Below are positions 28,901-51,121 of a DNA stretch of 64,000 nt, piece after piece. This DNA is from Salegentibacter echinorum (lineage in GTDB: Bacteria > Bacteroidota > Bacteroidia > Flavobacteriales > Flavobacteriaceae), in NCBI RefSeq assembly GCF_900129445.1, contig NZ_FQVT01000003.1:124001-188000 (forward strand), in the 5' to 3' direction. How positions within the stretch are numbered: the stretch's first letter is position 1; each line of letters begins with the position of its first letter. The position numbers and the translations under genes are program-made. The notes under the pieces were generated by a model that searched no databases, had not been told where the DNA came from, and worked only from the letters and a program-made list of their open reading frames with translations.

Positions 28901-31090
28901 GGTCAGGATTCGTTCACTTATAGAGCAAACGATGGAAAACTCTATTCAAACATAGCCACGGTTACCATCACGGTAAACAGTACTACTGCACCCAATACCG
29001 CTCCGGTAGCCGTGGATAATACTTACAGTATAGATCAGAATGAGGTTTTGACAATTCCCGCACCTGGAATTTTACAAAACGATACCGATTCCGAGGAGGA
29101 TAATTTAACAGCTAGTCTGGATTCTGATGTTTCCAATGGAACCTTAACTTTAAATGCTGATGGTTCTTTTACTTACGAGCCAGATTTGGGTTATACCGGT
29201 CAGGATTCATTCACTTATACCGCGAACGATGGTACCGACGATTCTAATGTGGCTACGGTTACCATCACGGTAAACAGTACTACTGCACCCAATACCGCTC
29301 CGGTCGCTGAAAATGACACTTATGCGGTAGATCAGGATGAGGTTCTGCCCATTTCATCACCGGGAATATTACAAAACGATACCGATGCCGATGGCGATAA
29401 TTTAACGGCCAGCCTGGTTTCCGACGTTTCCAACGGAACGCTAATTTTAAATGCAGACGGTTCTTTTACTTACACTCCAAATTCTGGTTATGTCGGTCAG
29501 GATTCATTCACTTATACCGCGAACGATGGTACCGACGATTCTAATGTGGCTACGGTTACCATCACGGTAAACAGTACTACTGCACCCAATACCGCTCCGG
29601 TCGCTGAAAATGACACTTATGCGGTAGATCAGGATGAGGTTCTGCCCATTTCATCACCGGGAATATTACAAAATGATACCGATTCCGAGGGGGATAATTT
29701 AACGGCCAGCCTGGTTTCTGACGTTTTCAACGGAACGCTAACTTTCAATGCTGACGGTTCTTTTATCTATGAGCCATCTTCCGGCTTTACGGGTCAGGAT
29801 TCGTTCACTTATAGAGCAAACGATGGAAAACTCGATTCAAACATAGCTACGGTTACAATTACTGTAACTAAAAACGACCCAGCCGCGCCAGAAATAAATT
29901 GTCTAAACCACGTAATATTCCTCGATAAAAACGGAAAAGCCAGTTTGGAACCAAAAACTATCTATAATGGAGATAGGGCTGATTTAGAGTTAAAATTGAG
30001 TCAAACAAATTTTGATTGCTCTAATTTAGGGTCAAATACAGTTACACTAATAGCTACAGACCCGGAAACCGGTTTGAGCAGTTTGTGTACAGCACATATT
30101 GAAGTTCTTGATGTCATTTCGCCCGAGGCCAGTTGCATTTCCGGTTATGTTTTAGAGCTTGGTGAAGACGGTACCGCAAGTTTAGCTGCGGCTGCAATAG
30201 ACAATAATTCCACAGATAATTGTAGCATTGTTTCCCGATCTGTAAGTCGGCAGAATTTTACCAGGGATGATATTGGAGATGTTTCGGTTAGACTCACCGT
30301 GCGCGATGCAGCCGGGAATGAGGGGTCGTGTGAAAGTGTAATAAAAGTGATTGATAAACAAACTTCAGATTTTCAATGCAAAGAGAAAGTCAGCGTTTCC
30401 TTAAATGAGAATGGAAATGCCACACTTGCTGTAGAAGAGCTATATACCGGGGATGCAAGCGGAATTAATTTTGATAAAAATAATTATCAATTTAGCTGTG
30501 CAGATTTAGGTACGAAGACAATTCAGTTTAATTATTCAGGGAGAATTGAAGGAAGTTGTTCCATTAAAGTGGAAGTAAAAGATGAATTGGCGCCGACTAT
30601 AAATACAAATTTGATTAACGCAAGCCTGGATGAGGACGGATTTTTCTATTTAGATGAAAACAGGGTTGAGGCGGAAGATAATTGTAATACACCACTTCAA
30701 ATTACTTTGGAGAAAACGGTTTTCACCTGTGAAGATGTGGGGCAAAACTCAATTTTGGTAGAAGCTGAAGATGCTTCCGGCATCAAAACTTCAAAAGAAA
30801 TTACGGTAATTGTAAGTGGCGCCCCCTGTGAGCCATCAATTGAATTCAACGATATTAGGATATCTCCAAACCCCTCTGCTGGAATTTTTAAGATTGGTAC
30901 ACCCACAGATATAAAGATAAACGAAGTTAAGGTTTTCGATTCCCGTGGTAGGTTTATAACGCAAAAGGATTACAACATGAATTTCCGTTTTTATAAATTA
31001 AACCTGGAAAGCCTTCAGGAGTCGGTTTATACACTACAAATTTTTACCAATAATGGAGAATTTGTAAAACGAATAATTATAAAACGCTAG
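25952..31090 (+). CDS. Giant T9SS-exported adhesin-like protein
   Basis: A 1712-residue secreted protein. Order: signal peptide (hydrophobic core about 20-38, ending GFGQ); NHL-type beta-propeller repeats (about 210-390, e.g. RPYRIAVDKNGRIYIADGGG); two HYR-like modules of 166 residues starting at 486 and 652; five cadherin-like modules of exactly 99 residues from 817 to about 1311 (each beginning NTAPVA and containing GILQNDTD and DSFTY); four more HYR-like modules; and a C-terminal T9SS type A sorting domain from about 1632, starting with RISPNPSAG and ending with VKRIIIKR. Such proteins are exported by type IX secretion and attached or released at the surface. A role in adhesion or polymer binding is inference. 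It follows the two-component operon, which might regulate it. Confidence 0.85.
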   Translation: MNKYHSLPTGPNFRYLPKGLYPLLFIFFFLLKSGVGFGQENCIITSTATDPTETSPIPLNMKFEGSINRQLDEDDFIVSNGNIGNFERGVPEFTKSREDIEIENFQVEGSAFEIFIKGISEFLAEEFGDAVISIAHYTKDNLFYLSYSNGVKSLNLVTENKQSTSITGDDLNSPLDIEASLSGVDQRLYLADKNKQQVNVYNNATVKLDDFKVPNYDSSNDVGPTGIVTDDDGNIYVTVAFTPDGTYDVEYDKVAVYKPGNYNNPTVIPADNSGLQLDRPYRIAVDKNGRIYIADGGGSTPNGRVLVFDENYNHIHTIEGTQDKIGAPGSIIVDDFGYIYIIDYQNDITFNGIFQNPEDLLGEYDKIISTSYSVNVYDSNANFEYVTEFNQGLNLPIDLEIDYCGNILVNNLKLSGPAPEVLTGIDINFDFQLKTFTRHDNFTAEVTPNGEGLVEVSLNPENEFFPCDPQPECSFSIEYKTEAAPDPTFDCPIESEIDPLFYGNNCSVSVPDYEISNPQHFESDPFLVQTYTENENSVSVLLKVYDGENGDLVDECNFEVDLIDNKAPVISDCPPENIQYTIQEGETHILDDYTDQISVNDNCDSNPTIVQDPPAGTEITADQSVTLIVTDEADNETECNFKVEITEVAVPDPTFDCPVENNLDTIYYDDNCSYNVPKYKISNPQHFDPEPYLIQSHTENGDSVSVTIKVYNGEGGELVDICDFEVALEDNQAPVISGCPPENIQFTIQEGETHILDDYTGQISVNDNCDSNPSIVQDPPAGTEITADRLVTFTVTDKAGNETECNFMVEITEEEPNTAPVAADNTYSIDQNEVLTIPAPGILQNDTDSEDDNLTASLVTNVSNGTLTFNADGSFTYTPNTGFIGSDSFTYKANDGELDSNIATVTINVNSITAPNTAPVAADNTYSIDQNEVLTIPAPGILQNDTDSEEDNLTASLDSDVSNGTLTFNADGSFTYIPNSDFKGQDSFTYRANDGKLYSNIATVTITVNSTTAPNTAPVAVDNTYSIDQNEVLTIPAPGILQNDTDSEEDNLTASLDSDVSNGTLTLNADGSFTYEPDLGYTGQDSFTYTANDGTDDSNVATVTITVNSTTAPNTAPVAENDTYAVDQDEVLPISSPGILQNDTDADGDNLTASLVSDVSNGTLILNADGSFTYTPNSGYVGQDSFTYTANDGTDDSNVATVTITVNSTTAPNTAPVAENDTYAVDQDEVLPISSPGILQNDTDSEGDNLTASLVSDVFNGTLTFNADGSFIYEPSSGFTGQDSFTYRANDGKLDSNIATVTITVTKNDPAAPEINCLNHVIFLDKNGKASLEPKTIYNGDRADLELKLSQTNFDCSNLGSNTVTLIATDPETGLSSLCTAHIEVLDVISPEASCISGYVLELGEDGTASLAAAAIDNNSTDNCSIVSRSVSRQNFTRDDIGDVSVRLTVRDAAGNEGSCESVIKVIDKQTSDFQCKEKVSVSLNENGNATLAVEELYTGDASGINFDKNNYQFSCADLGTKTIQFNYSGRIEGSCSIKVEVKDELAPTINTNLINASLDEDGFFYLDENRVEAEDNCNTPLQITLEKTVFTCEDVGQNSILVEAEDASGIKTSKEITVIVSGAPCEPSIEFNDIRISPNPSAGIFKIGTPTDIKINEVKVFDSRGRFITQKDYNMNFRFYKLNLESLQESVYTLQIFTNNGEFVKRIIIKR
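28400..29884 (+). repeat. Five tandem 297-base coding repeats
   Basis: Units start at 28400, 28697, 28994, 29291 and 29588, each at AATACCGC[A/T]CCGGT, a spacing of exactly 297 bases. Long blocks are identical between neighbours: the middle of units 2 and 3, the first third of units 4 and 5, and the ends of units 3 and 4. That mosaic suggests recent duplication or gene conversion. Confidence 0.9.
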
Positions 31091-38413: not shown

Positions 38414-38444
38414 TTGAAACTTTGCAAACGAATGAGTACTTTTA
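38414..38444 (+). promoter_or_regulatory. Promoter of pcm
   Basis: TTG (38414-38416), 20 bases, TACTTTTA (38437-38444), one base off TAnnTTTG. It places the transcript start after 38446, supporting the GTG start at 38464 over the TTG at 38422. Confidence 0.5.
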
Positions 38445-38463
38445 CAGTTTAAATGGTGTAAAA

Positions 38464-39108
38464 GTGATTAAGGACAACTATAGACATAAAGGCAAGAGGC
38501 AGCAATTGGTAAATATTGTAAAAAAGAAAGGAATTACCAGCCAATCGGTAATTGAGGCTATTGGTAAAATTCCCAGGCACCTTTTTATGGATAGCAGTTT
38601 TGAAGATCACGCTTACCAGGATAAGGCTTTCCCCATTGCGGCAGATCAAACTATTTCCCAACCTTATACTGTAGCTTTCCAAACAGAAAAATTGGAAGTA
38701 GAAAAAGGAGACAAGGTGCTGGAGATTGGAACCGGGAGTGGTTATCAAACTGCGGTTCTATGTGAGTTGGGCGCAAAAGTATATAGTATAGAGAGACAGC
38801 GGGAACTATATAAAAAAACTAAATCTTTCTTGAATAAAATAGGCTACCGTCCCAAGCACCTTAGTTTTGGAGATGGTTATAAAGGTATGCCAAATTATGC
38901 ACCTTTTGATAAAATTGTAGTTACTGCGGGAGCGCCTTATGTTCCTAAAGCTTTGTTGGGCCAATTGGCTGTTGGCGGAAGAATGGTTATTCCCGTTGGC
39001 GACGAATCTCAAACCATGACGTTGTTTATTAGAAAATCCCTTCACGAATTTGATAAAACCGAGTTTGGAGAATTTCGGTTTGTTCCTTTATTGGAGGATA
39101 AGAATTAG
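38464..39108 (+). CDS. pcm: Protein-L-isoaspartate O-methyltransferase
   Basis: A 214-residue SAM-dependent methyltransferase that repairs isoaspartyl residues in damaged proteins. Motifs: IPRHLFMDSSFEDHAYQDKA, ADQTISQPYTVAF (the isoaspartate-binding stretch), SAM motif VLEIGTGSGYQTAVL, and PYVPKALLGQLAVGGRMVIP. I start at GTG 38464 (second residue Ile, then KDNYRHKGKRQQL), which matches the usual family start, because the upstream TTG at 38422 lies inside the predicted promoter. Length then fits the family. Confidence 0.9.
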   Translation: MIKDNYRHKGKRQQLVNIVKKKGITSQSVIEAIGKIPRHLFMDSSFEDHAYQDKAFPIAADQTISQPYTVAFQTEKLEVEKGDKVLEIGTGSGYQTAVLCELGAKVYSIERQRELYKKTKSFLNKIGYRPKHLSFGDGYKGMPNYAPFDKIVVTAGAPYVPKALLGQLAVGGRMVIPVGDESQTMTLFIRKSLHEFDKTEFGEFRFVPLLEDKN

Positions 39109-39646
39109 GTTCTCGGTTCTCGGTTTTCAGTTATGGGGTCTGAGTTTTAATTAATGTCATTTCTAAACCTGCTGGTTTCTGGCTTTTTTTTGGTTTGTTT
39201 TTTGACATTAGTTGCGGGGTGCAAGTTGCGAGTTGCATGTTGGCCCACTGCCTACTGGTACTGCCTACTGAACACCGCTGCCTAATTTTTTCTCTTATCG
39301 ATCTTTCTTGGGCTACACTATACAATCTACATTCTACATCCCCCATATTTCCTACTCACTACGACTGCCAACTGGATATTGCAACTGCCAATTGATTTTC
39401 CTTTATCGAATAAATAATGCATTTTATCTATTTCTTATTTCACTGATTGTCAGTATAATATTACGAAATTTTTTTGTCAAAGTTAAGTGGATTCCCCTAT
39501 ATTTGATTATCCCAAATTACTTACGCTACTGGTTTTTCCATTCCCCCCGGAAAAAAGATTATTGATTGTTTTTAAGTTTATTTCCCTACATCATTGCCCC
39601 AAGCAATTTTTATTAATTGGCTTTTACAGCTATAAACTAATTTATT
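39109..39646. repeat. Intergenic region with degenerate repeats
   Basis: 538 bases. 39109-39131 reads GGTTCTCGGTTCTCGG followed by TTTTCAG; 39240-39285 holds CCCACTGCCTACTGGTACTG and ACTGAACACCGCTGCC; 39362-39392 holds ACTGCCAACTGG and AACTGCCAATTG. These match 14.38-14.56 kb in content and order. Short ORFs across 39195-39687 lack coding character. The last 100 bases are AT-rich leader of the regulator gene. Confidence 0.5.
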
Positions 39647-40663
39647 ATGATTTCAGAAAAGAAACATTTATTGGTGGTTACCAATAAGCAGAGTATGCTG
39701 GACTGCATTGAGGAGGGAACAAGTATGCAATTTGAAATAGCTCACGCTAGTTCATTGCACGTAGGATTTAATATGGCACTTAATCTCCTTCCCGATATTA
39801 TTCTTTTGGACTATTCCTCGTTTAGATCTGGAAGAAATTTTAAAAACATTGCCAACTTCAAATCTAACCATTTTTTAACCAAAGCCTGGTTAGTAGTTTA
39901 TGTCGATGAGTGTTATCGTGCTGAGGCTGAAAGTAGGTTTAGAAAAGTTGTAGATGAATTTGTTTATTCCTCAAGCGTGGAAGCATTATGTGGAAAAATC
40001 ATAAAGATGGTTTATTCTAACCCCTCTCTTTCAAATTTTTGGAAAGACTCTTTTATGGGAATGTTTCACCTTCTCTCCAAACCTGTATTGCTATTGGATC
40101 AAAACGAAATCATTGAGATGAACGATGCTTTTAAACAGAATTTTAGGATAACTAAAAAAGAGGGGCTGCAGCTTACAGATTTTGTAAGATGTGAGAATGT
40201 ACAAAAAGTAAAGGAAAGCTTAAGGAATTTTGCCCGTGGTAAACATATAAAAGCAGTCACTAAAGCTCCTTTATTACTTAGAAATGATAAAATAAGAAAC
40301 GCGCGCATTAACTTTTCCAAACTAAACAGGAATTGCAATCATTATTTTATTATGATAATTGATTTTATGGAGGGTGAGGAGATGATTAATTCTAATATTG
40401 GCACCACCTCGAATGCTGTAGAAGAATGTTTTAATGAGAATAAACAAATAGCCGACTTTAAATTCACTAAAAGAGAAAAGGAAATTATAGAGCTGTTAAT
40501 TAAAGGTTATCGCACTAAAGATATCTCTAAGACGCTCTTTATTTCTGCTAAGACCATAGAAAAACATAGATCCAACATCATTAAAAGAACTAATTCTGAT
40601 ACGATTTTAGAGAGTATTATTTACGCTATAAATCATAAATTACTCGACCTTCAAAAAGTATAA
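39647..40663 (+). CDS. LuxR-type regulator with degenerate receiver domain
   Basis: A 338-residue regulator. Residues 5-125 look like a receiver fold: hydrophobic strand KHLLVVTNK, then PDIILLDYSSF with Asp55 at the phosphorylation position. However the acidic pair expected after strand one is replaced by Thr-Asn, so normal phosphorylation is doubtful. Residues 140-245 look PAS-like (LLDQNEIIEMNDAFKQNF). Residues 272-335 are a LuxR/GerE helix-turn-helix: KFTKREKEIIELLIKGYRTK and ISAKTIEKHRSNIIKRTN. It lies 218 bases upstream of the lipoprotein array in the same direction and is the obvious candidate to control it (inference). Confidence 0.8.
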   Translation: MISEKKHLLVVTNKQSMLDCIEEGTSMQFEIAHASSLHVGFNMALNLLPDIILLDYSSFRSGRNFKNIANFKSNHFLTKAWLVVYVDECYRAEAESRFRKVVDEFVYSSSVEALCGKIIKMVYSNPSLSNFWKDSFMGMFHLLSKPVLLLDQNEIIEMNDAFKQNFRITKKEGLQLTDFVRCENVQKVKESLRNFARGKHIKAVTKAPLLLRNDKIRNARINFSKLNRNCNHYFIMIIDFMEGEEMINSNIGTTSNAVEECFNENKQIADFKFTKREKEIIELLIKGYRTKDISKTLFISAKTIEKHRSNIIKRTNSDTILESIIYAINHKLLDLQKV

Positions 40664-40699
40664 CCAACCTGAAAATCAAAATACGCGGGAATTCCCCCA

Positions 40700-40731
40700 T
40701 TGATTTAAAGAAGGTTTTGCTACTATATTTA
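40700..40731 (+). promoter_or_regulatory. Promoter of the lipoprotein array
   Basis: TTG (40700-40702), 21 bases, TATATTTA (40724-40731), one base off TAnnTTTG. The transcript would begin near 40737 and carry a leader of about 145 bases. Confidence 0.45.
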
Positions 40732-40736
40732 CATCA

Positions 40737-40881
40737 ACAAAAGTAGTCACCCCAATTCCACTACTTTAAAGTAAATTGATCAATTACACTTCCCCGAGGT
40801 AATTGTTGTGTGTAGCCAGAAATACCTACAAATAAGGCTACAAGTATTAAAAACTAAGTATTAACCAAACGCTTTAAAGAT
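40737..40881 (+). promoter_or_regulatory. Structured leader with competing hairpins
   Basis: Stem 1: AAAGTAGT (40740-40747) with ACTACTTT (40760-40767). Stem 2: the palindrome AATTGATCAATT (40774-40785). Stem 3: CAATTAC (40781-40787) with GTAATTG (40799-40805). Stem 4: TGTAGCC (40811-40817) with GGCTACA (40836-40842). Stems 2 and 3 share bases and exclude each other. No known riboswitch class was recognised. Confidence 0.45.
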
Positions 40882-41871
40882 ATGAAAAGCTTTAAACTCC
40901 ATTCAATAGGTATTGCAATCTGTGCGTTGTTTTGTTTATCCTGCAGTAAGGAACAAGCGAATTATATAGATACTGAAGAAATGAAAATGGGATTTATAGC
41001 GATGGAAACGGTATTTGGGGGATCTAATAAGGCTGGAGATTTTAGGCAAGCTATCCCGCAGTGCTCTGAAGAGACCCCGACTTTTGCCAGGGTAGTTTTA
41101 ACCCACGATCTTGGAGAAGTGGATGCGATAGTTCCAATACTTTCAGATGATAATGATTTTTTTACAGATTATGATGATGAGTTGGCTATTCCAATTCCTT
41201 CCGGTCAAAATAGTACCAATGTTAGTCTCACAGATTTTATGGTTTATGCAGGTAATCCTGAAAATAACAGTCAGTTACCCCCTATTTGGGTGGCACCGAA
41301 AGAAGGTAGTGAGTATGCTGTTTTTGTAAATAACCCCCTGGCAATAAATTTTAAACTAGGCGCCGGTACGAAGAAATATGTACCTATAGAAGTTTTGTGC
41401 TTCGACGATAGGGAAGTAAATCAATATGGATATCAATTTTTTGATGTAAAACCTTTATCGCTAATTAAATTCTGCCTGTTTGGGAATTACTGTGCCCCAG
41501 ATACTGGAAAACACTATGTAGCTGGTTATCAGGTAAACGTTTGGCAGGGTACAGATGCCAGCGGCGATTTACTCTATGATGAGTTAACAAGTGAGGTACA
41601 TTTCAAGGAAAATGGTGAGATATATTATGCAAAACCTTTATGTCTATGGCTGCCAGACAGATCGGGAGTGGATAATTACTATTTTGAAATTAGTATAAAC
41701 AATACAGCAGAGTATAATACTGTTGATGCTGGTAAAGTTGTGCTCTCGGGTGCGATTACCGATGCAGGAATTAAGATGTATTACAACGAAGATAATACTA
41801 TGGATTATTACCATTTTAGGTATGGATGTGAATCTGAGAATGCGCCGCCATTTGTGGTGCCAAATCAATAA
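40882..41871 (+). CDS. Array lipoprotein A: core module only
   Basis: A 329-residue lipoprotein, first of five paralogs. The signal peptide ends ALFCLSC with lipid Cys21, followed by SKEQ, a lipoprotein export signal-like stretch. The family core is complete: PQCSEETP near 58, IWVAP near 130, KKYVPIEVLCFDDREVNQYG near 165, FGNYCAP near 200, PLCLWLPD near 255 and the closing YYHFRYGC. The conserved cysteines could form disulfides. No extra C-terminal module follows. I know no named family for this core. It is preceded by the structured leader. Confidence 0.75.
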   Translation: MKSFKLHSIGIAICALFCLSCSKEQANYIDTEEMKMGFIAMETVFGGSNKAGDFRQAIPQCSEETPTFARVVLTHDLGEVDAIVPILSDDNDFFTDYDDELAIPIPSGQNSTNVSLTDFMVYAGNPENNSQLPPIWVAPKEGSEYAVFVNNPLAINFKLGAGTKKYVPIEVLCFDDREVNQYGYQFFDVKPLSLIKFCLFGNYCAPDTGKHYVAGYQVNVWQGTDASGDLLYDELTSEVHFKENGEIYYAKPLCLWLPDRSGVDNYYFEISINNTAEYNTVDAGKVVLSGAITDAGIKMYYNEDNTMDYYHFRYGCESENAPPFVVPNQ

Positions 41872-41973
41872 AAACAAAGAAAACCCCGGTTTAAAACTCA
41901 ATTGTTGACTTTAAATCCTGGAAATATTAACCATTCTAAATTTTTAATTATTAACCTTTAAATACTTTTAACT

Positions 41974-43434
41974 ATGAAAAATTTTAAAAATTACTTTATG
42001 TATTTCGCAGTATTAGCGTTATGCTTTACTTCCTGTAGTAAGGAGGAATCGGGCAGTTTGCCAGATGATGGTGAAAAAGCTCAATTGTCTTTTGGCACCA
42101 CTTTGAATGATTTGCTCAATAATGGAGCGAAGAATCAAACCAAAGCACATTTTTCTGACATTCCAGAATGTTCAGACGAAGCTCCTGCAACTGTGGATGT
42201 AGTAATATCCCAATCCAGCGGTGCTGATATAGAGTTAACATTAGATGTTTTGTCTGATGATCTTGACGGAGATGGGGATATGGATTATTACACAGATTAT
42301 TCCAGTGATCTTGAACTTTCTCCCGGTATTTATACTTTAGAGGAATTTATCGTGAGGGATTCTGATGGTGATATGATTTGGATTGCTCCTATCGATGATG
42401 GTTCTGGAGACTTTGACGGTTATGTTACCAATCCATTACCAATGGATATTGACCTTAAAGCAGGTGTTAAAAAGTATGTTGACGTAGAAGTATTGTGCTA
42501 CGATGATCGTATGGCCAATCTTTATGGATACCTTTTCTTTGATATTGAAGGAAAAGAACTTATTGAATATTGCATATTTGGTAACTACTGTACACCTAAT
42601 GGAAGACACTATACTGCATCTTACAGTGTAGATGTATGGAACTATGAAGACGGTGAAAAAACCGATCAACTTTATGATGACCTTACTGCTGGAGTAAGCC
42701 AGAACAATGATGGCGACTATGCTGCAGATCCATTATGTATTGTATTACCAGATGGTGAAGGTGATGATGAATACTGGATTGAAATCACTATTCTTAGTAC
42801 AGATGAATACAATGTAACCGAAGAAATTATTCGTGCCGGTGCAATTACCGATACAGAAGTTAGAACTTTATTCGATGGAGATGACAACTTAGAATATTAC
42901 CATTTCTTTGAAGGAGATTGTGGTGAAGACGATATGATGATTCCAGATCCTCGCGAAGACAAAGAGTACTATAAAGCTTGTTTGAAATCTTTAAACGGTT
43001 CAGAAGTGGTAGCTTTTTCATATTTAGCTTTAACAGAGAATTCTTCTGGAACAACTTTATATACTCAGGTAGTTGCTAATAACACAGAAGCTAATCAACC
43101 GCACCCACAACATATACATGGGTTTACCGATGGTACTATTTCTACCTGCCCAGATATGTCTCAGGATAGTAATGGAGATGGTTTAATTCAACTTGGAGAA
43201 GGAGCGGCAACCTATGGTGGAGTTTTATTGGCCTTAGAGAATGCAGATTCAAGCTTCCCTACAGCTGACGGTACTGGAATGTACTTCTACCAGAGAACAT
43301 TTAATCTTTCTGGAAGTCTTTCTGGTGATCTAGATCCATTAGATGAGAAAACAGCGGTACTACACGGTATGACAGTAGGCGGATCTTATGAAGCCACATT
43401 GCCAATCGCTTGTGGACCTTATGTTCAGCAATAA
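41974..43434 (+). CDS. Array lipoprotein B: core plus CHRD-like module
   Basis: A 486-residue lipoprotein (lipobox CFTSC, then SKEES). Core to about residue 315: LSFGTTLNDLLN, IPECSDEAP, DLELSPGIYTLEEFIV, WIAPIDDG, GVKKYVDVEVLCYDD, FGNYCTP, YYHFFEGDC. From about 330 a second module resembles CHRD-type domains: KACLKSLNGSEVVAF, PHPQHIHGFTDGTISTCPD, DGTGMYFYQRTFNLSG and AVLHGM. CHRD domains occur in secreted proteins and their HxHG motif is typical; ligand unknown. About 100 bases from gene A and closed by a strong terminator. Confidence 0.75.
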   Translation: MKNFKNYFMYFAVLALCFTSCSKEESGSLPDDGEKAQLSFGTTLNDLLNNGAKNQTKAHFSDIPECSDEAPATVDVVISQSSGADIELTLDVLSDDLDGDGDMDYYTDYSSDLELSPGIYTLEEFIVRDSDGDMIWIAPIDDGSGDFDGYVTNPLPMDIDLKAGVKKYVDVEVLCYDDRMANLYGYLFFDIEGKELIEYCIFGNYCTPNGRHYTASYSVDVWNYEDGEKTDQLYDDLTAGVSQNNDGDYAADPLCIVLPDGEGDDEYWIEITILSTDEYNVTEEIIRAGAITDTEVRTLFDGDDNLEYYHFFEGDCGEDDMMIPDPREDKEYYKACLKSLNGSEVVAFSYLALTENSSGTTLYTQVVANNTEANQPHPQHIHGFTDGTISTCPDMSQDSNGDGLIQLGEGAATYGGVLLALENADSSFPTADGTGMYFYQRTFNLSGSLSGDLDPLDEKTAVLHGMTVGGSYEATLPIACGPYVQQ

Positions 43435-43471
43435 GCATGTGTGTGAGTGATTCTTAATAAAGAATAGAAAC

Positions 43472-43510
43472 AAAGACACCTCTTGTTTCTCAGGAGGTGT
43501 CTTTATTTTA
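43472..43510 (+). terminator. Terminator after lipoprotein B
   Basis: AAAGACACCTC (43472-43482) pairs with GAGGTGTCTTT (43494-43504) followed by ATTTT. Only 40 bases remain before gene C, so C needs its own promoter or read-through. Confidence 0.75.
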
Positions 43511-43550
43511 AAATCAGATTTTTAGTAAGGCTAAAATCTTAAATTTTTAA

Positions 43551-45179
43551 ATGATGAAAAAATATAAAATACTAATGGCTTGCATTGCTATTTTTGCATT
43601 GCTATTTTCTTCCTGTAGTAAGGAAGAAGATCCCATGCAAAATACGAGTGCAGATAAAGCTACATTGTCATTTGGGGTAAGCCTAAATGATCTCTTAAAC
43701 AAACAACCGACAACCAAATCCCATTTTTCCGATGTTCCAGAATGTTCAGATGCTGAACCGGCAACTGTAACCATATCTGGTAGACGAGCGGGTTCAAGTG
43801 GATCATCCACTTTTACTTTAGATGTACTATCAGATGATCTTGATGGAGATGGGAATATGGATTATTATACAGATTATTCCGAAGATCTGGAATTAGAACC
43901 AGGTCAATATATACTTGAAGAATTCATTGTTTATGATGATGATGGAAATGTTATTTGGGTGGCTCCTATAGATGATGATGATAGTGGAGAATATGATGGT
44001 TATGTTGATAATGCATTACCAATGGAAATAGACCTTAAGGCTGGAGTGAAGAAATATGTGGATGTAGAAGTGCTTTGCTTCGATGATAGGGAAGTAAATC
44101 AATATGGCTACCTTTTCTTCGATTTAATTCCGAAGAAACTTCACGAGCTTTGTTTCTTCGTTAACTATTGTGCAGATAATGGCCGTCACTACACCGCAAA
44201 CTATAGCTTAGATCTATGGTACGTTAATGACGACGACGATGATAATAATATGCAAATAATTGATGGGGATATGCCGAATACCGGTATGAACAATGACGGA
44301 GATTATTTTGCAAACCCTTTATGTGTTGCGGTTCCAGAACCAATTTATGGTGAGGCTGCAGAGGATGATTACCTGTATTACGAACTTACCTTAGAAGATT
44401 GGGACGGTAATTATGGCGATGTTGACAATAGTGCCACGATCTCTGGTTATTTAAGCTGGGCTGATGTTCAGGAAATGCTAGATAGAGATGGAGATGATAC
44501 CACTGTAGATTACCTGCATTTATCTTTTAATTGTGGTGACGATGATGGTAATGGAAATGGAAATGGTGGAGAATGTGATCTTGAAGATCCTAACGCCGAT
44601 TGTGATAATGACAATGTGCCAAATGGCCAGGACCAATGTGAAGGTTTTGATGATAATATGGATTATGACGGTGATGGAGTACCAGACGGTTGTGATGATG
44701 ATATAGATGGTGACGGTGTACCAAACGATGTAGATGAATGTCCTGAAACTCCACTTGGAGTAGAAGTTGACGAATTTGGATGTGAGGTAGATGATTCTAC
44801 GGAATGTGAATTCACAATAACTGTAGATTGTACAAATTACTATCTCAATGGAAATGTTTCAGAACCCACTGTTATTGATGATCCTGCCTTCTTTTTAGGA
44901 GATAATTTTAATGAAAGAGTTGCTACGATAACTATAGATTGGTCCATAGGAGGAGATATTTTTTATGTGATAAATATGATAGATGGTTATACACTGCAGG
45001 ACTATCAAATTAAAATTTATTCAGACGCGGCACTATCAAATGAAATTTGTCGTACCGAATCTGGACTTGATGCTGAGGGAGAAGGAGCTGCAGAGGGAAC
45101 ATTTAATGTTTCAGGCGCTTTTTCTGATGTCTTCTATGCAAGCATTGTAGCTAATGTTTGTGGTGATGAAGTAGAATAG
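43551..45179 (+). CDS. Array lipoprotein C: core plus thrombospondin type 3 repeats
   Basis: A 542-residue lipoprotein; start ATGATG at 43551 (either ATG possible). Lipobox LLFSSC then SKEED. The core is closest to B: LSFGVSLNDLLN, VPECSDAEP, DLELEPGQYILEEFIV, WVAPIDD, LKAGVKKYVDVEVLCFDDRE, CFFVNYC. Residues about 340-420 are acidic calcium-binding thrombospondin type 3 repeats (NDNVPNGQDQCEGFDDN, DGDGVPDGCDDDIDGDGVPN). The final 120 residues (from ECEFTITVDCTNYYLNG) form an unassigned domain with three Cys. The protein is strongly acidic. Confidence 0.75.
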   Translation: MMKKYKILMACIAIFALLFSSCSKEEDPMQNTSADKATLSFGVSLNDLLNKQPTTKSHFSDVPECSDAEPATVTISGRRAGSSGSSTFTLDVLSDDLDGDGNMDYYTDYSEDLELEPGQYILEEFIVYDDDGNVIWVAPIDDDDSGEYDGYVDNALPMEIDLKAGVKKYVDVEVLCFDDREVNQYGYLFFDLIPKKLHELCFFVNYCADNGRHYTANYSLDLWYVNDDDDDNNMQIIDGDMPNTGMNNDGDYFANPLCVAVPEPIYGEAAEDDYLYYELTLEDWDGNYGDVDNSATISGYLSWADVQEMLDRDGDDTTVDYLHLSFNCGDDDGNGNGNGGECDLEDPNADCDNDNVPNGQDQCEGFDDNMDYDGDGVPDGCDDDIDGDGVPNDVDECPETPLGVEVDEFGCEVDDSTECEFTITVDCTNYYLNGNVSEPTVIDDPAFFLGDNFNERVATITIDWSIGGDIFYVINMIDGYTLQDYQIKIYSDAALSNEICRTESGLDAEGEGAAEGTFNVSGAFSDVFYASIVANVCGDEVE

Positions 45180-45555
45180 ATAATGAAATATCCAGTGAAC
45201 TTATATTACCGGGGGGTGACTAATTCACTGGATTGGTTTTTGTATCTCGATTTCTATTGACAGATATAGAGACAGGGCTGTGCGATTTTATCGCACAGCT
45301 TTTTTGTTTTATTAAAGCGGCAATATGGAAAAATCCTAATTACGGGTTTTCTCTTAGATCTTACTTTCATGAAAATAAATTTTCTTTTTTTTCGTTATTG
45401 TGAAATTATCGACAACAAAATTAGTCCGCGATAGATTCTTGTAGGAATCTGACTATTAAAATGTTATAATTGGTTTTTTGTTTTTTTTGGAACGAAGCTT
45501 GCCATTTCAGCGGAAACTATATTTAATTAAATTTTAAAAAAGTAATACCCTACTT
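45180..45555. other. Intergenic region: two hairpins and leader
   Basis: 376 bases. A hairpin TCCAGTGAA (45191-45199) / TTCACTGGA (45224-45232) with a 24-base loop lies right after gene C, then the strong terminator at 45277. Beyond 45310 the sequence is A/T-rich with no ORF; it must hold the astacin gene's promoter, which I could not place. Confidence 0.5.
45277..45306 (+). terminator. Terminator after lipoprotein C
   Basis: GCTGTGCGAT, loop TTT, ATCGCACAGC, then TTTTTT. Strong rho-independent terminator. Confidence 0.85.
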
Positions 45556-46587
45556 ATGAAAAAAAGTAAATTTTTATTATTACCTGTTTTAGCGATTTTA
45601 GCTTGTAGTAAAGACGAAATTTCAGAAAATGTTGAAACAGAAGCTCAAATTAAACCCGAAGAAATTGCTAACCAGGGCTCTGAAGTAGCCTACCCCGAAA
45701 ACACCGGATCTATCTCTAATATTTATTATGCTGGTCAAAAAATGCCGGTAGAACAACATAACGAAGATTATGTTTACCAGGGAGACATCCTTATTCCGGC
45801 CAATAAATCCAGCAAATCACCCCAAACCATTATCTATAAGAATAAGGAAGCGATCCCGCAAACAAAGAGTACCGGTAAAACATCTGGAAGATGGCCTAAT
45901 AATACCGTATATTATTCAATTAGTTCTAATTTGCCTGAAAAAAGTCGTGTTTATGATGCCATAAAACATTGGGAGAGTAAAACCTCTTTAAAATTCAAAA
46001 AGCGTTCAGGTCAATCTAATTATATCTATTTTACTCCCGGTTCCGGCTGTGCTTCCTATGTTGGGATGATAGGAGGTAAACAGAAGATTACCCTGGCCTC
46101 CAATTGTAGTACGGGTAATACTATTCACGAAATAGGTCACGCCGTAGGATTATGGCACGAACAAAGCAGGGTAGATAGGAATGATGTAATTAGCGTACAT
46201 TTAGAAAATGTAAGAAAAGGTACCGAGCATAACTTTCATACCTACGAGACCAATGGTTTTGATGGGGACGAATATACCAGTAACTTAGATTTAGGCTCTA
46301 TAATGATGTATGGTCCATATTCTTTCTCAACTAATCGTAAACCCACTATTACTAAAAAAGACGGTAGTCTTTATAAGATTCAGCGTAACGCTCTTTCTAC
46401 CGGTGATATAGCAGGTATCAACAAGATGTATCCTAAAAATGATAAAGAAAAACCTACCTACGAAAATGGGGAGTATTATACGATAAATGGAATTACAGCT
46501 TTAAGAATGTATGATGCCTGGCTACATTATTCGAAATATGGATGGTTGGAAATAAAATTCTACAAGAATTACTGGTATTACGTTTAA
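45556..46587 (+). CDS. Astacin-type (M12A) metalloprotease lipoprotein
   Basis: A 343-residue zinc protease anchored as a lipoprotein: signal LLPVLAILAC with Cys17, then SKDE, the same export-type stretch as the paralogs around it. The astacin zinc site HEIGHAVGLWHEQSRVDR begins at His191 (ligands 191, 195, 201, catalytic Glu192), and the Met-turn SIMMYGPYSFS is at about 248. The catalytic unit starts near 105 (GRWPNNTVYYSISSNLP); residues 20-100 are a possible propeptide. A 45-residue tail rich in Tyr, Trp and Lys follows the catalytic domain. It sits between array genes C and D with its own terminator. Confidence 0.88.
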   Translation: MKKSKFLLLPVLAILACSKDEISENVETEAQIKPEEIANQGSEVAYPENTGSISNIYYAGQKMPVEQHNEDYVYQGDILIPANKSSKSPQTIIYKNKEAIPQTKSTGKTSGRWPNNTVYYSISSNLPEKSRVYDAIKHWESKTSLKFKKRSGQSNYIYFTPGSGCASYVGMIGGKQKITLASNCSTGNTIHEIGHAVGLWHEQSRVDRNDVISVHLENVRKGTEHNFHTYETNGFDGDEYTSNLDLGSIMMYGPYSFSTNRKPTITKKDGSLYKIQRNALSTGDIAGINKMYPKNDKEKPTYENGEYYTINGITALRMYDAWLHYSKYGWLEIKFYKNYWYYV

Positions 46588-47146
46588 CCTAATTCAGTAA
46601 TTACCAGGAATTTTAAATTTATATTTTAACAAAACCCGAATTTTTATTCGGGTTTTTACATTTGTTTAAATTAGAAATTTCCAGCACTTAAAGGTCATAT
46701 TCCATTCTCAATTAAGATTGAAATAGATATAATATATTAATGTTAAATTAAAGAGAAATGTTCTTTAGACAGGAATAGCAATTTATGCTCAATTACCCCT
46801 CAGTTTAACTTTTTCCTAACTTTGCGTGATCGGTTTTTCTACAAAGATGTGGAATAAATACACAGTTTCCTGGTGTTATATATCAATCGAATTACCACGC
46901 TGAAATTTTAACAAATTTATTTTCAATCGATGATTTAATATGCTTCCCAATTAATTTTTGATTTAGAACATTTTTTAAGGGTTTTCCCTTATAATAAAAT
47001 GTGAAAGTATCTCATATCTTAGTTTTATTAAACGAGCTGTTTCCTACCTACTAAAGCTCAATACTAAACTCCCCATTTCGTTTACCTACAATTGAAATTA
47101 TTAAGAATTGACTCCTTTTAGAGACATTAATTTAATGAGTTTTAAA
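46588..47146. other. Long intergenic region before lipoprotein D
   Basis: About 560 bases with the astacin terminator at 46632 and then A/T-rich sequence. TAACTTTG at 46817-46824 fits the -7 box but has no -33 partner and would imply a leader of over 300 bases. No ORF with coding character and no tRNA were seen. A small RNA cannot be excluded. Confidence 0.4.
46632..46657 (+). terminator. Terminator after the astacin gene
   Basis: AAACCCGAAT, loop TTTT, ATTCGGGTTT followed by T. Good rho-independent terminator. Confidence 0.8.
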
Positions 47147-48643
47147 ATGAAAAAAATAATACGCCTAAGTTTATTCGTGTTCATCGTTTCTTTTGGTTTT
47201 TATTCCTGTACCAAAGAAGAAACAGGATTAGAAAATGAAGAATCCAGAAATGTGGGAAAATTATCCTTTGGAAGTGTTTTAAGTGATTTAGCGAATCGAA
47301 AATCGATCACTAAACAGGTGGAGGATGTATATGAAATTCCAGAATGTTCCAGCGACTCGCCTTTGTATGTTAGGGTTGCACTCAAAGTGAAAAATGAAAA
47401 CGATATTTGGGAGTGGTTTAAAAATTCCAATGAAAATAAAATTGAAATTGAAGTAAACCCCAACGGCTCAGATATGGATGAAGATGGCACTTTAGATGCC
47501 TGGTTTACTCAGGAATCTTCAGATTTAGAACTGGAGGAAGGCTTATACTCACTGGAATACTTTGCCGTGGCCAGTGCCCCGGGAAATGATCCTGCCGATA
47601 TTATTTATATGGCTCCCAGGCGACCACAAGGAGAGTTAGACTATACAGAAACTATCCAATACCATAATTTTGTTAAAAAGCCGCTACCCATAACTGTAAA
47701 AATTCGACCCGGGGTAAAATACTACCAACCGGTAGAAGTACTTTGCTATGAAGAGCATTATGCTTTTGCTTTTGGGTACCTTTTCTTTGACTTCAACAGT
47801 ACCGCTTTAGAATACTTATGCGTTTTTGGTAATGTGTGTGATGAGTCACAACAACATCTTCCGGCCTCATTTAAAATTAAAGTCTGGAAAGAATCTGAAG
47901 CCGGTGATCTACTGGTCGTAGCACAAAATTCCAGAAAGTCGTTTACCGATGATAACGGCACGCACTACTATGCCGATGCCTTATGTTTCCCACTTCCTAA
48001 ATTAAAACAAACTGAAAGCTTTTATGCCAAAATATGGCTAGTGGAAGATGATACCGAAACATTAATAAGAGAAGGAAATTTTGATAGTTATAATTTATCT
48101 CAAATATATAGGGCAGAACAGGAGCATTACTATTACCACTTTCGTGAAGGCTGTTGCGATACCGAAGATGAGGTTGCTTTGCTAAATGATCTTACCCAAA
48201 ACGAAGGGGAATGTGAGGAAGAACCTCAGGATCCGGAAGAACCAGAAGATTGTGGGGTATGTGATGATGAAGATGATGATGGGAAAGTAAACGAGCTTAA
48301 GCTTAAATATATAGGACAAAATTCGATCACTTTAACAGTAATGAATAAAATTACAGGTAATAATGAAGCCATTATTGAGAATATAACAGTAATTGATGGT
48401 GATATTATAGATATCCCGGCCGAATGGAATCACGATGGCCACGGTAATATTATTGGTAATAATTTGGAATTTTTAATTGACGGACAAACCAATGAATTTA
48501 TACACGTAAGTTGTTCTGAAGTGCTGTTTTTAGGAAAAAAGACTAGCCTGGAAGGGTCTGAAAAAAGTACGGAAAATGGAAATTTTGAAATTAACTATAT
48601 AAAAACAAGCAGAGGAGGGGAATGTCCACTCCCACCGGAATAA
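47147..48643 (+). CDS. Array lipoprotein D: core plus DUF7467-like module
   Basis: A 498-residue lipoprotein. I start at the ATG at 47147 (MKKIIRLSLFV) because the longer frame to 47108 would bury the signal peptide. Lipobox FGFYSC then TKEET. The core is a diverged version shared with E: LSFGSVLSDLA, IPECSSDSP, DLELEEGLYSLEYFAV, YQPVEVLCYEEHY, FGYLFFDF, CVFGNVCDES, ADALCFPLP and YYHFREGCC. After an acidic linker (EEEPQDPEEPEDCGVC) a final 110-residue module (KVNELKLKYIGQNSITLTVM to FIHVSCSEVLFLG) resembles DUF7467-type beta domains; that name is from memory. Confidence 0.72.
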   Translation: MKKIIRLSLFVFIVSFGFYSCTKEETGLENEESRNVGKLSFGSVLSDLANRKSITKQVEDVYEIPECSSDSPLYVRVALKVKNENDIWEWFKNSNENKIEIEVNPNGSDMDEDGTLDAWFTQESSDLELEEGLYSLEYFAVASAPGNDPADIIYMAPRRPQGELDYTETIQYHNFVKKPLPITVKIRPGVKYYQPVEVLCYEEHYAFAFGYLFFDFNSTALEYLCVFGNVCDESQQHLPASFKIKVWKESEAGDLLVVAQNSRKSFTDDNGTHYYADALCFPLPKLKQTESFYAKIWLVEDDTETLIREGNFDSYNLSQIYRAEQEHYYYHFREGCCDTEDEVALLNDLTQNEGECEEEPQDPEEPEDCGVCDDEDDDGKVNELKLKYIGQNSITLTVMNKITGNNEAIIENITVIDGDIIDIPAEWNHDGHGNIIGNNLEFLIDGQTNEFIHVSCSEVLFLGKKTSLEGSEKSTENGNFEINYIKTSRGGECPLPPE

Positions 48644-48657
48644 AAATATTAAACCCA

Positions 48658-48692
48658 TAAACCTGTCATTGGGTGGTTCTTTTACAGGTTTA
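48658..48692 (+). terminator. Hairpin between lipoprotein D and E
   Basis: TAAACCTGT (48658-48666) pairs exactly with ACAGGTTTA (48684-48692). The T tract after it is poor, so it may be a leaky terminator or an mRNA-end stabiliser rather than a full stop. Confidence 0.4.
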
Positions 48693-48730
48693 TATTCAAA
48701 CCAATTATTAATTAATCTAAATTTTTTATT

Positions 48731-50440
48731 ATGAAAAGAATTAAAATTTATTTAGCATTTGTAGCGATGGCGGCAATGCTGGTAACCTCTTGTAGCAAAG
48801 AGGACAATGGAGATGGTCCCGATGGGCCAAAAGGGGGCGATGAAATGGCTGCCCTTGGTTTTAACGCGCTTTTGCAAGGTTTCAATAAGTCAGTCTTAAC
48901 AAAACAACAAACACCGGGAACACAAAATAATGGCTTGCCGGAATGTCCAGAAGATAGTGAAGAGGATTTATTTGTAAGAGTCCAATTATTAACAGGTGCT
49001 ACTGGAGATAATGTTTACGAAAAAGACGGTGACTCTCATTTCGATGTGCCAATTATTCCTCAAAGCGATGGTACTTGGTTAACAGGAGAGGGCTCCAATG
49101 ATGAATTGGAACTGCCTGAAGGAGTTTATAGACTTAATTACTTTGGTGTTTATGCATCGGGGGGCGATGATAATGATGACAACGATGACACACTTCTTTA
49201 TCTTGCACCTCGTGATGATGATAATTATGGTCCTGCGCAATATCAAAATTTTGTTGACGACGCTTTGCCCAGTAATCCATTCTCTGTGAATAATGGACAA
49301 AAGAAATATGTTGATGTGCAAGTGCTTTGTTATGATGAACATTTTGTGAACAAGTATGGATATTTGTTCTTCGATTTTGAAGAAGTAGATATTCTTTACC
49401 TATGTCTTTTCGGCAACGTATGTGATGAAGAAACTGGAAGGCACACTCCCGCAGTATTTGAATTTGAAGTATGGAATTATAGTGGGGATAGTACAAACCC
49501 AAAAGGTTCTCCTTTATTCGTTGCCGGTAATGAATTGAAAGAAGGAACCGATGAATATGGAACCTATGAATATGCAGAACCCGTTTGTGTACAGTTACCA
49601 GATGCTCCAGGAGAAATTGACACCTATTATGGAGAAGTTTATTTGCTTAATAGTGATGGTACCCGTGGCGATCTCATTAGGTTTGGAATGTTTGATGAAA
49701 CTGGTGTAAGGGCTCAAGATTATAGTGTAGATGGCAATGGTGATTCCACCAGTAACTATTACCACTTTAGAGAAGGGAATTGCTCAAATCAAGATGATTC
49801 AGATCCATGTTTGTTCTCAGCTCCAGTTGAATACAGTAATGACTTTGATGGAGATGATGATAAAGCTTTCCTTCCTGGTATAACTGGTATTGCTGGTAAT
49901 TATGTGGATAAAACTACTGCTACACCTTCTAACACTGCAAATAGCGGTACAATGCAAGATGAAGGTACCTATGGTTTCTTTACCAGTCCAAGCCAGGTAC
50001 ATAGTAATTGGATTAACTTAACTGGTAGTGGTAATATGCTAATTATTAATGGAGAAGATGATGAGGCTAATACTTCTCCTTATTTTGTGATATCAGAAGA
50101 ACAAATATGTCCAGATTCCGAGTACTTTATAAGCTTTGACATTGTGAATGTTCTAAAAAATGACAATGGAGGAGGGAATAACAATGTTGACCTTGCAGTA
50201 AGGGTTAACGGTACTCTTATTCCAGGCGCAAATATAGTTGCGCCTTATTCTAGTGGCTCCCAATCATGGATGTCAGTTGGCTTAAAGCTTAGAGCCGATG
50301 GCAATGGCGATATCAACTGCGTTTTTGAAAATGCAGAAACAGCTGCCAACGGTAACGATTTTGCTATAGACAATATCGTAATATCCAATGATCAAAATAC
50401 ACTTGATGGTTCTGAAGATGTTACTATAATTCAACCTTAA
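48731..50440 (+). CDS. Array lipoprotein E: core plus carbohydrate-binding-like module
   Basis: A 569-residue lipoprotein (AAMLVTSC then SKEDN). The core pairs with D: LGFNALLQGFN, LPECPEDSE, LELPEGVYRLNYFGV, LYLAPRDDD, KKYVDVQVLCYDEHFVNKYG, CLFGNVCDEE, EPVCVQLPD, YYHFREGNC. From about residue 355 a jelly-roll-like module begins (ETPV-type start SAPVEYSNDFDG) with GSGNMLIINGEDDEANTSPY, SEYFISFDIVNVL and FAIDNIVIS, the layout of galactose-binding or CBM-type folds. Ligand is inference. It ends the array with a strong terminator. Confidence 0.75.
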   Translation: MKRIKIYLAFVAMAAMLVTSCSKEDNGDGPDGPKGGDEMAALGFNALLQGFNKSVLTKQQTPGTQNNGLPECPEDSEEDLFVRVQLLTGATGDNVYEKDGDSHFDVPIIPQSDGTWLTGEGSNDELELPEGVYRLNYFGVYASGGDDNDDNDDTLLYLAPRDDDNYGPAQYQNFVDDALPSNPFSVNNGQKKYVDVQVLCYDEHFVNKYGYLFFDFEEVDILYLCLFGNVCDEETGRHTPAVFEFEVWNYSGDSTNPKGSPLFVAGNELKEGTDEYGTYEYAEPVCVQLPDAPGEIDTYYGEVYLLNSDGTRGDLIRFGMFDETGVRAQDYSVDGNGDSTSNYYHFREGNCSNQDDSDPCLFSAPVEYSNDFDGDDDKAFLPGITGIAGNYVDKTTATPSNTANSGTMQDEGTYGFFTSPSQVHSNWINLTGSGNMLIINGEDDEANTSPYFVISEEQICPDSEYFISFDIVNVLKNDNGGGNNNVDLAVRVNGTLIPGANIVAPYSSGSQSWMSVGLKLRADGNGDINCVFENAETAANGNDFAIDNIVISNDQNTLDGSEDVTIIQP

Positions 50441-50469
50441 GCTGAATTAAATTTTTAGTTCAATTTTTA

Positions 50470-50497
50470 GAAGGGCCTATACGGGCCCTTCTTTTTT
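50470..50497 (+). terminator. Terminator closing the lipoprotein array
   Basis: GAAGGGCC, loop TATACG, GGCCCTTC, then six T. The stem could also work for the convergent gene at 50540. Confidence 0.88.
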
Positions 50498-50539
50498 GCT
50501 TTTATTCCTTTAAAACTTTCAGGAAAATGAGAGACGGAT

Positions 50540-51121
50540 TTACCTATTTATTTCTGCTTTCACAAAATTTATTAACTCTTCAAAAAAAGCGTTAAATTCT
50601 TCTTCGAATTCACTATAAAATTCGCGTAATTCATTTACCGCTAAGTTCATGGCTACCGGATGCGTAATCCTTCGGCCCATCTGACTTAGAATTTTTTCAA
50701 TTCCATCTATAGTACGATAGCTATATAACCAATTTTGAGAAACCATATAAGGCAGAAAATTCTGTACCTTTTTGGGTAAAACTTTATAATTATCCTGTAA
50801 GAGTTTATAAAAATCTTCGGTGTAGGTTTTTAACCAGATGTCACTGTAGTTTTTCCAGTTGGCTGCCAGGAAGTGATCGTAGAGCACATCCATAATCACC
50901 CGACTATAATGTCCGTATTTATCGAATAGTTTAGAAACACTTTGGCTAACTATAGGATGGGTATCTGTAAAACTATCTATAGCCCGGTGCAGAATAATAC
51001 CTTTCTGAATTCTTTCGGGATACTTTAAATACTGTTTTCCTTTTACAGAGTCTGCAATAAAATTTCCAATTTTTAATTCATCGTCGTCACCCGAAAGATA
51101 GATGTGTGCAAGAAAATTCAT
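50540..51121 (-). CDS. Acyl carrier protein phosphodiesterase
   Basis: A 193-residue protein of the AcpH (DUF479) family, which removes the phosphopantetheine arm from acyl carrier protein. N terminus MNFLAHIYLSGDD, then IGNFIADSVKGKQY, and the His/Asp-containing GIILHRAIDSFTDTHP near 42 and VIMDVLYDHFLAANW near 74, forming an HD-like metal site. Length and blocks fit E. coli AcpH. It is divergent from glmM and convergent with the lipoprotein array. Confidence 0.88.
   Translation of the reverse strand: MNFLAHIYLSGDDDELKIGNFIADSVKGKQYLKYPERIQKGIILHRAIDSFTDTHPIVSQSVSKLFDKYGHYSRVIMDVLYDHFLAANWKNYSDIWLKTYTEDFYKLLQDNYKVLPKKVQNFLPYMVSQNWLYSYRTIDGIEKILSQMGRRITHPVAMNLAVNELREFYSEFEEEFNAFFEELINFVKAEINR

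What the first reader, a model, noticed from the sequence alone, without database searches (positions are those of the whole stretch)
40882..50440. Array of five paralogous surface lipoproteins with one shared core and different C-terminal modules
Seen: five lipoproteins share a core with the order PECS-type motif, DLEL..G.Y.L..F.V, [WY].AP, VEVLC or VQVLC, FGN.C, LC..LP and YYHF..GC, so about six cysteines are kept. Their tails differ completely: none (A), CHRD-like with HIHG (B), thrombospondin type 3 plus an unassigned domain (C), DUF7467-like (D), jelly-roll-like (E). B and C are close to each other, as are D and E, which suggests repeated duplication with swapping of tails. I know no name for the core. 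Inference: a constant surface platform presenting variable binding modules.
Basis: partly seen in the sequence, partly recalled or inferred. Interest (0 to 1): 0.78.

Follow-up and report, generated by a model that had tools for sequence, protein, structure and literature searches.

The report
Exchangeable-tail surface lipoprotein array with protease
A marine bacterium and its relatives keep a row of probable outer-surface proteins that share one constant body but carry different end pieces, set between a gene regulator and a protease, and one of the end pieces appears to be swapped between species like a cassette.

Summary
Confirmed and extended. Five paralogous lipoproteins share a ~300-residue core with six invariant cysteines and carry unlike C-terminal tails; three more copies lie elsewhere in the genome. 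No curated Pfam or NCBIfam model is passed over the core of the window proteins. The published surface-export signal C-x-K-(D/E)2 occurs in 98 of 118 members, against 2 of 63 other predicted lipoproteins nearby. Tails exchange: at the last array position, in 34 within-genus species pairs, tails fall to 32% identity or less in 27 while cores hold 57-91%; DNA identity returns behind the stop; shared tails are under purifying selection, so replacement rather than fast drift. The CHRD-like tail is predicted to have the Cu/Zn-SOD fold. Best reading: a regulated surface-display locus, constant platform plus exchangeable modules, with a protease that may trim or shed them. Binding, regulation and cleavage are inferred. 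Three distant core-bearing genomes show no regulator or astacin nearby.

The parts
39647..40663 (+). LuxR-type regulator: receiver-like N-terminus (by eye), weak PAS, GerE helix-turn-helix
   Evidence: GerE E 6.1e-13; PAS_9 E 0.0034, below cut-off; directly upstream of 22 of 22 complete main arrays and of 3 more
40882..41871 (+). A: core lipoprotein without tail
   Evidence: core residues 21-318 of 329; sits with six CHRD-tailed genes in one clade (100/100), so it probably lost its tail
42034..42924 (+). B: core platform (gene 41974-43434)
   Evidence: two predicted beta domains, pLDDT mostly above 90
42925..43431 (+). B tail: CHRD-like, predicted Cu/Zn-SOD fold, QH[IL]H motif and a later His
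   Evidence: Foldseek of full-length B to SODs, prob 1.0, E 6.6e-4 to 8.5e-4 for the best three, absent from the listed hits of core-only A; His positions kept in 24 of 24 CHRD-type tails, by eye
43614..44537 (+). C: core platform (gene 43551-45179)
44538..45176 (+). C tail: thrombospondin type 3 stretch, then a beta-type module; last position before the astacin
   Evidence: TSP_3 29 bits; tail cluster T0.1; exchange at this position in relatives (the window's own C was not among the pairs)
45274..45302 (+). terminator-like hairpin after C
   Evidence: 13-pair stem and T run (the total of 8 such sites is no higher than the 7.1 of shuffles)
45556..46587 (+). astacin (M12A) lipoprotein, CSKDE at the lipobox
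   Evidence: Astacin E 6.9e-48; HExxHxxGxxHE and Met-turn in 28 of 28 array astacins; directly downstream of 22 of 22 complete arrays
46631..46656 (+). terminator-like hairpin after the astacin
   Evidence: same caveat
47207..48157 (+). D: core platform (gene 47108-48643)
48158..48640 (+). D tail: DUF7467-like
   Evidence: orthologue L055 matches PF24269 at E 1.5e-5, 26.2 bits against 27; D itself none at E 1
48791..49789 (+). E: core platform (gene 48731-50440)
49790..50437 (+).
   Evidence: no Pfam match over cut-off; five-row profile finds nothing convincing in the PDB (best E 0.63)
50469..50492 (+). terminator-like hairpin after E
   Evidence: same caveat

Best explanation
The locus is a regulated surface-display system. 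A LuxR-type regulator controls an array of lipoproteins. Each has a lipid anchor with an export signal, then a constant two-domain beta platform stapled by probable disulfides (six conserved Cys), then in most members a C-terminal module held out from the cell, sometimes on a thrombospondin type 3 stalk. Shared core sequence lets homologous recombination put different modules on the same platform; the last position before the protease is replaced most often. The astacin lipoprotein of the same locus most likely works in the same place, trimming or shedding modules or digesting what they hold. Shown here: homology, export signal of the core proteins, synteny, tail exchange. Inferred: disulfides, binding by the tails, control by the regulator, location and substrate of the protease.
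For: Eight paralogues with six invariant Cys; in 110 aligned cores one row lacks one of the six, and three more are gapped at the last Cys, where the row was cut at the profile end. Export signal C-x-K-(D/E)2 in 98 of 118 members against 2 of 63 other predicted lipoproteins of the same loci, both of these array astacins (signal as defined in PMC5080379, passages seen). Regulator and astacin flank 22 of 22 complete arrays and L117-L119; the other 27 loci with cores (L057, cut by its contig end, apart) show neither. In a family sample of 299 genomes the six with a full-length core are the six with an astacin of 56% identity or more. Exchange: at the last position 27 of 34 species pairs have tail identity of 32% or less (18 of 34 within the range of shuffled tails, maximum 26) with cores at 57-91%, while 34 of 34 CHRD-tail pairs stay at 47% or more. 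DNA identity drops in the tail and returns past the stop in L065/L073 and L034/L035. Shared last tails have dN/dS 0.07-0.19 in 4 of 4 pairs tested. L051 and L053 share a tail (82%) on cores of 69%, while L053 and L069 share a core (80%) with unlike tails (20%).
Against: No ligand, cleavage, location or expression data. The distant core-bearing genomes G367, G422 and G013 show neither regulator nor astacin in the stretches fetched (L113-L116), so the link is not as old as the core. Only 2 of the 22 array astacins caught by the lipobox rule have the full export signal; most have CSKDP, CSKDN or CSED forms. Astacins of 43-53% identity stand without cores or regulator in the one stretch fetched from each of five other genomes. 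Tail classes T0.1-T0.4, and T0.0 with some of them, are distant kin by profile comparison, so much of the exchange is between far-apart forms of one module superfamily. Sixteen of 118 members have a tail under 60 residues. In L034/L035 the second half of the core also falls to 54-66% DNA identity, so the border is not always at the core end. L063 against L042 is only an early stop. Terminator-like sites suggest A-B-C, astacin and D-E may be separate transcripts.
Confidence: 0.55

Rival explanations
1. The core is a distant fimbrillin (type V pilus, Mfa2/FimB-like) subunit: the lipoproteins assemble or cap fibres after proteolytic removal of the N-terminal strand, here by the astacin, and the tails are tip modules.
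For: The core model's Foldseek list holds Bacteroidota fimbrial or putative adhesion proteins 4h40 (E 6.3e-4), 4k4k, 5nfi (Mfa2), 3r4r and 3liu; two beta domains after a separate N-terminal strand near 36-45 and a lower-confidence loop; weak Mfa1-family matches at the N-terminus of B, C and E (E 0.001-0.003).
Against: TM-scores are near 0.2 and rmsd 15.5-18, so no whole-chain match; the Mfa1 matches begin at residue 3-4 in the signal peptide and are gone when 109 of 110 cores are scanned without it; no Pfam fimbrillin match at E 1 in the window proteins or at 0.1 in 110 cores; no conserved Lys/Arg seen in the N-terminal loop of the consensus (by eye); PF08842 matches 0 of 99 phylum genomes, the own one included, and 1 of 14 controls.
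Confidence: 0.12
2. Ordinary paralogous lipoproteins whose tails differ because duplicated copies drifted; no exchange and no functional locus.
For: Paralogy is plain; some tail classes are distant homologues; distant relatives lack the flanking genes.
Against: Flank-core-tail-flank DNA profiles show replacement between conserved borders; shared tails are under purifying selection; tail labels need 28 changes on the core tree with merged classes, the least possible for 14 states being 13; fixed regulator and astacin in 22 of 22 arrays.
Confidence: 0.13
3. The tails are enzymes or metal-handling modules rather than binding modules: a surface set for redox or metal defence.
For: B tail is predicted to have the SOD fold with a conserved QH[IL]H and a later His; L038 tail matches DUF7133 (E 5.1e-10) and, below cut-off, GSDH; L043 tail matches TTHB210-like.
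Against: The SOD zinc ligands were not seen in the T1 alignment by eye; for the commonest tails (50 of 118) the representatives scanned gave no enzyme match; TSP_3 and PPC are usually structural modules (recalled).
Confidence: 0.1

Closest known systems
Surface-exposed lipoproteins with an export signal (Capnocytophaga canimorsus; PMC5080379, passages seen)
   Same: C-x-K-(D/E)2 at the lipidated Cys
   Different: here one core family with exchangeable tails in a fixed locus
Adhesins made by shuffling a mutable ligand-binding fold (CshA-type; PMC10952558, title and start of abstract in the listing only)
   Same: domain shuffling generates new surface proteins
   Different: there, as I read the listing, the ligand-binding fold is what moves; here the anchor platform is constant and the tip changes
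Polymorphic toxins (recalled): constant N-terminal part, swapped C-terminal tip
   Same: swap of a C-terminal cassette on a conserved carrier, flanks kept
   Different: no ORF of 100 residues or more lies between C and the astacin that could serve as immunity gene; no toxin family match in the tails scanned
DUF4458 (PF14660)
   Same: a distant relative of the core passes its cut-off (L114, 22.7 against 22.4 bits)
   Different: window proteins do not (C, 12.6 bits; the others none at E 1)
Fimbrillin / Mfa2-type pilus lipoproteins
   Same: two beta domains, lipoprotein, weak fold hits
   Different: no sequence family match and no whole-chain superposition

Membership tests
Surface lipoproteins with the export signal of PMC5080379 | optimal signal C-x-K-(D/E)2 at the lipidated Cys | tested here: met
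   4 of 5 window members (A is CSKEQ) and the window astacin; 98 of 118 family-wide
Surface lipoproteins with the export signal of PMC5080379 | demonstrated surface exposure | not testable with these tools
   needs labelling or shaving
DUF4458 (PF14660) | score at or above 22.4 bits | tested here: not met
   C scores 12.6; 7 of 110 cores at E up to 0.1, best 0.018; only distant L114 passes
Fimbrillin (Mfa2 PF08842, Mfa1 NF038041) | family model match over cut-off | tested here: not met
   no Pfam fimbrillin match at E 1; Mfa1 16.7-18.1 bits against 130
Fimbrillin (Mfa2 PF08842, Mfa1 NF038041) | fold | tested here: inconclusive
   E 6.3e-4 to 1.7e-2 but TM near 0.2
Astacin M12A (gene at 45556) | family match, HExxHxxGxxHE and Met-turn | tested here: met
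CHRD (PF07452), B tail | score over 24.1 bits | tested here: not met
   B none at E 1; orthologues L066 18.2 and L041 15.1, five other orthologues scanned none
Cu/Zn superoxide dismutase, B tail | fold | tested here: met
   on a predicted model: Foldseek prob 1.0, TM by target 0.44-0.54 for the three SODs with E below 0.001; the aligned range is not printed, so its place in the tail is inferred
Cu/Zn superoxide dismutase, B tail | copper and zinc ligands and activity | tested here: inconclusive
   HxH and a later His kept in 24 of 24; zinc ligands not seen by eye; activity untested
Thrombospondin type 3, C tail | TSP_3 over 25 bits | tested here: met
   29 bits
DUF7467 (PF24269), D tail | score over 27 bits | tested here: inconclusive
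   D itself none at E 1; orthologues 26.2 and 20.8
Polymorphic toxin system | cognate immunity gene behind each variable tip | tested here: not met
   no ORF of 100 residues or more between C and the astacin; shorter ones not examined
Anti-phage defence (PADLOC) | match to a defence protein model | tested here: not met
   six proteins sent (regulator, A, C, astacin, D, E; not B): no match except the regulator's helix-turn-helix to two CARF models

The most novel reading that the evidence does not exclude
A dedicated recognition locus of marine Flavobacteriaceae: a signal-responsive regulator, a constant disulfide-stapled surface platform, cassette-exchangeable recognition tips, and a co-displayed astacin that cleaves the tips off on contact or on cue, so that identity tags at the cell surface can be both swapped in evolution and shed in real time.
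Probability: 0.2. Interest if true: 0.8.

Novelty: new variant of a known kind. Interest (0 to 1): 0.5.

Why it matters
It describes a surface-protein family that the curated models searched do not name, ties it to a fixed regulator and protease, and offers a clear natural case of tip exchange on a constant anchor in environmental Bacteroidota. If the tips are what phages, rivals or algal hosts recognise, comparing closely related non-pathogenic marine strains that differ only in a tip is a direct test.

Tried and rejected
Polymorphic-toxin reading: disfavoured, no toxin family match in the tails scanned and no immunity-sized ORF of 100 residues or more behind C. Anti-phage defence: no match beyond a helix-turn-helix in six proteins. 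Phase variation by inversion: no inverted repeats of 24 nt or more in 39200-50600. Plasmid spread: no match in the plasmid collection with paralogue F's core. Positive selection on the last tail: not supported, dN/dS 0.07-0.19 in 4 pairs. The first tail count of 44 changes was judged too high because some classes are distant kin; the merged count is 28. L042/L063, first taken for a swap, is an early stop. The genome search for DUF4458 rang in no genome and in no control, so it says nothing. A profile search of PDB sequences with the core found nothing convincing (best E 0.21); the F-type tail profile gave E 0.022 at best. Paper searches listed no paper that I recognised as describing this locus; only listings and passages of one paper were seen and one search was swamped by mammalian papers, so this is weak evidence of absence.

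Full report
Observation. The five genes, their lipoboxes, motifs and unlike tails are as described. In the own genome the E query finds all five plus three more members: F on contig 39 (tail with a DSSGSM stretch), G on contig 19 about 6 kb before the window, and H on contig 28 with no tail. Eight cores share six invariant Cys beyond the lipidated one. None of the five passes a curated Pfam or NCBIfam model over the core; of 110 rows scanned one by one (109 cores and full-length A), the best core matches are E 0.0078 in Pfam and 0.017 in NCBIfam, both scattered over few rows.

Distribution. 12 of 13 genomes of the genus, own included, match the E core; G010 does not. In family samples 9 of 299 (eight-row profile) and 14 of 397 (110-row profile; overlapping samples) match, several over part of the core only. 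In the order sample 6 of 296 match: own, G367, two genomes of a second family with three core genes in a row, and two partial matches. The named scan returned 46 loci from Salegentibacter, Salinimicrobium, Gillisia and Christiangramia; it needs short conserved peptides, so it misses remote kin, and records of the window's own genome may be left out. A plasmid search with paralogue F's core found nothing.

Mining. From these loci, the window and some unnamed-genome loci, 118 non-identical complete members were kept after dropping frames cut by a locus end, two partial cores and six duplicates. Tails of 60 residues or more occur in 102 of 118. Clustering gives a large TSP3-plus-module class (54 before splitting), CHRD-like tails (24), the E type (8), the D type (5), the F type (5) and rarer ones: PPC (L044), DUF7133 and weakly GSDH (L038), TTHB210-like (L043). 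Profile comparison links T0.1-T0.2 and T0.2-T0.3 at 98%, T0.1-T0.3 at 86%, T0.0 to T0.1 and T0.2 at 89-93% but not to T0.3 (4%), and T0.4 to T0.1 only (87%); the CHRD, D, E and F types match none of the others (5% or less).

Export signal. The best C. canimorsus signal is C-x-K-(D/E)2 (PMC5080379, passages seen). 98 of 118 members have it. Of 63 other predicted lipoproteins in the same loci, picked by a home-made lipobox rule, 2 have it, both array astacins, one of them the window's; but 20 of the 22 array astacins in that set do not have the full signal. In the window B, C, D, E and the astacin have it; A has CSKEQ.

Locus. In one search, 22 of 22 complete main arrays have the LuxR-type regulator directly upstream and the astacin directly downstream of the first three or four core genes, 'directly' meaning no other ORF of 90 residues or more in the layout. 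L057 shows regulator and core before its contig ends. The other 27 loci of that call with cores show neither gene, though some are short. L117, L118 and L119 add three more arrays, L119 with a 121-residue ORF on the other strand before the astacin; L123 there is the same contig, by length, as L065. L113-L116, the distant cores, show neither regulator nor astacin. All 28 array astacins keep HExxHxxGxxHE and the Met-turn. In one search, 19 of 299 family genomes have an astacin at E 1e-20 or better; those of 56% identity or more are in the six genomes with full-length cores, and five genomes at 43-53% have no core or regulator in the one stretch fetched from each.

Exchange. The tree of 118 cores has 84 of 115 inner branches well supported; tail labels need 44 changes, or 28 with the TSP3-type classes merged. 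Cores of one array are more alike (median 52%, 131 pairs, D and E types included) than CHRD-tailed cores of different genera (median 44%, 161 pairs), which fits local duplication or gene conversion. For the pair test I used 18 of the 22 arrays in four within-genus groups; the window, L032, L048 and L054 were not in it. At the last position before the astacin, tails fall to 32% identity or less in 27 of 34 pairs while cores hold 57-91%; 7 of 34 pairs share the tail (51-86%). CHRD tails never fall below 47% in 34 pairs. T0.0 tails keep up with their cores in Salegentibacter (medians 81 and 74%) but drop in Salinimicrobium and Christiangramia (35 and 42%). DNA windows show the drop inside the gene and the return behind it for L065/L073 and L034/L035, in the latter after a weaker stretch (54-66%) already in the core. 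Shared last tails are under purifying selection (dN/dS 0.07, 0.19, 0.19, 0.19). L051 and L053 share a tail better than a core, L053 and L069 the reverse. One seeming case, L042/L063, is a premature stop and was removed from the argument.

Structure. Full-length B (110 rows) was predicted at mean pLDDT 86.9, pTM 0.56: an N-terminal strand, two beta domains, then a beta tail. Its Foldseek list is led by a weak multi-domain pilin match (SpaE, E 5.6e-4, TM about 0.2) and then filled by Cu/Zn superoxide dismutases (prob 1.0). No SOD is among the 50 listed hits of A, which lacks the tail, so I place the SOD match in the tail. A gave 82.8 and 0.55; its hits are the TIE protein (E 2.2e-5), then fimbrial or putative adhesion proteins of Bacteroidota, all with TM near 0.2. 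I read this as two generic beta sandwiches with uncertain relative placement, and keep fimbrillin kinship as a rival. Only two of the five window proteins were modelled; alignment over the whole core makes unrelated folds very unlikely.

Conclusion. What the tips recognise, what the astacin cuts and whether the regulator controls the array are open.

Noticed in passing
window 38422-39108 and L042, L049, L063: In the window the array lies beside the gene of cluster c19 (read by me as a pcm-type methyltransferase), while in the other main arrays it lies beside cluster c1 (read as uvrA); in L042, L049 and L063 (Salinimicrobium, Gillisia) c19 adjoins a solitary core gene. A rearrangement between two core-bearing loci may have happened here.
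   Followed up: no
L010:10740-11372: A stand-alone lipoprotein about 0.8 kb downstream of paralogue G resembles G's tail, so a tail module also exists without the core (by eye).
   Followed up: no
L048:16374-17021 and L117:8279-8932: Core genes with little more than the first domain lie behind the astacin; possibly remnants.
   Followed up: no
L063:9941-10963: An early stop cuts the tail although the following DNA stays 86-98% identical to the L042 gene.
   Followed up: partly
L120, L121, L122, L124: Relatives that match mainly the first core domain, without most of the conserved Cys by eye, carry LRR (L124), receptor-L (L120) or other tails: the platform idea may be wider than the six-Cys family.
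   Followed up: partly
L114:6638-9959: Two distant members with tails that look like LruC/DUF4842-type domains (recalled label; one of the two was scanned and Pfam gave only DUF4458).
   Followed up: no
   Followed up: no
window 25952-31090: A single 1712-residue open reading frame, not examined.
   Followed up: no
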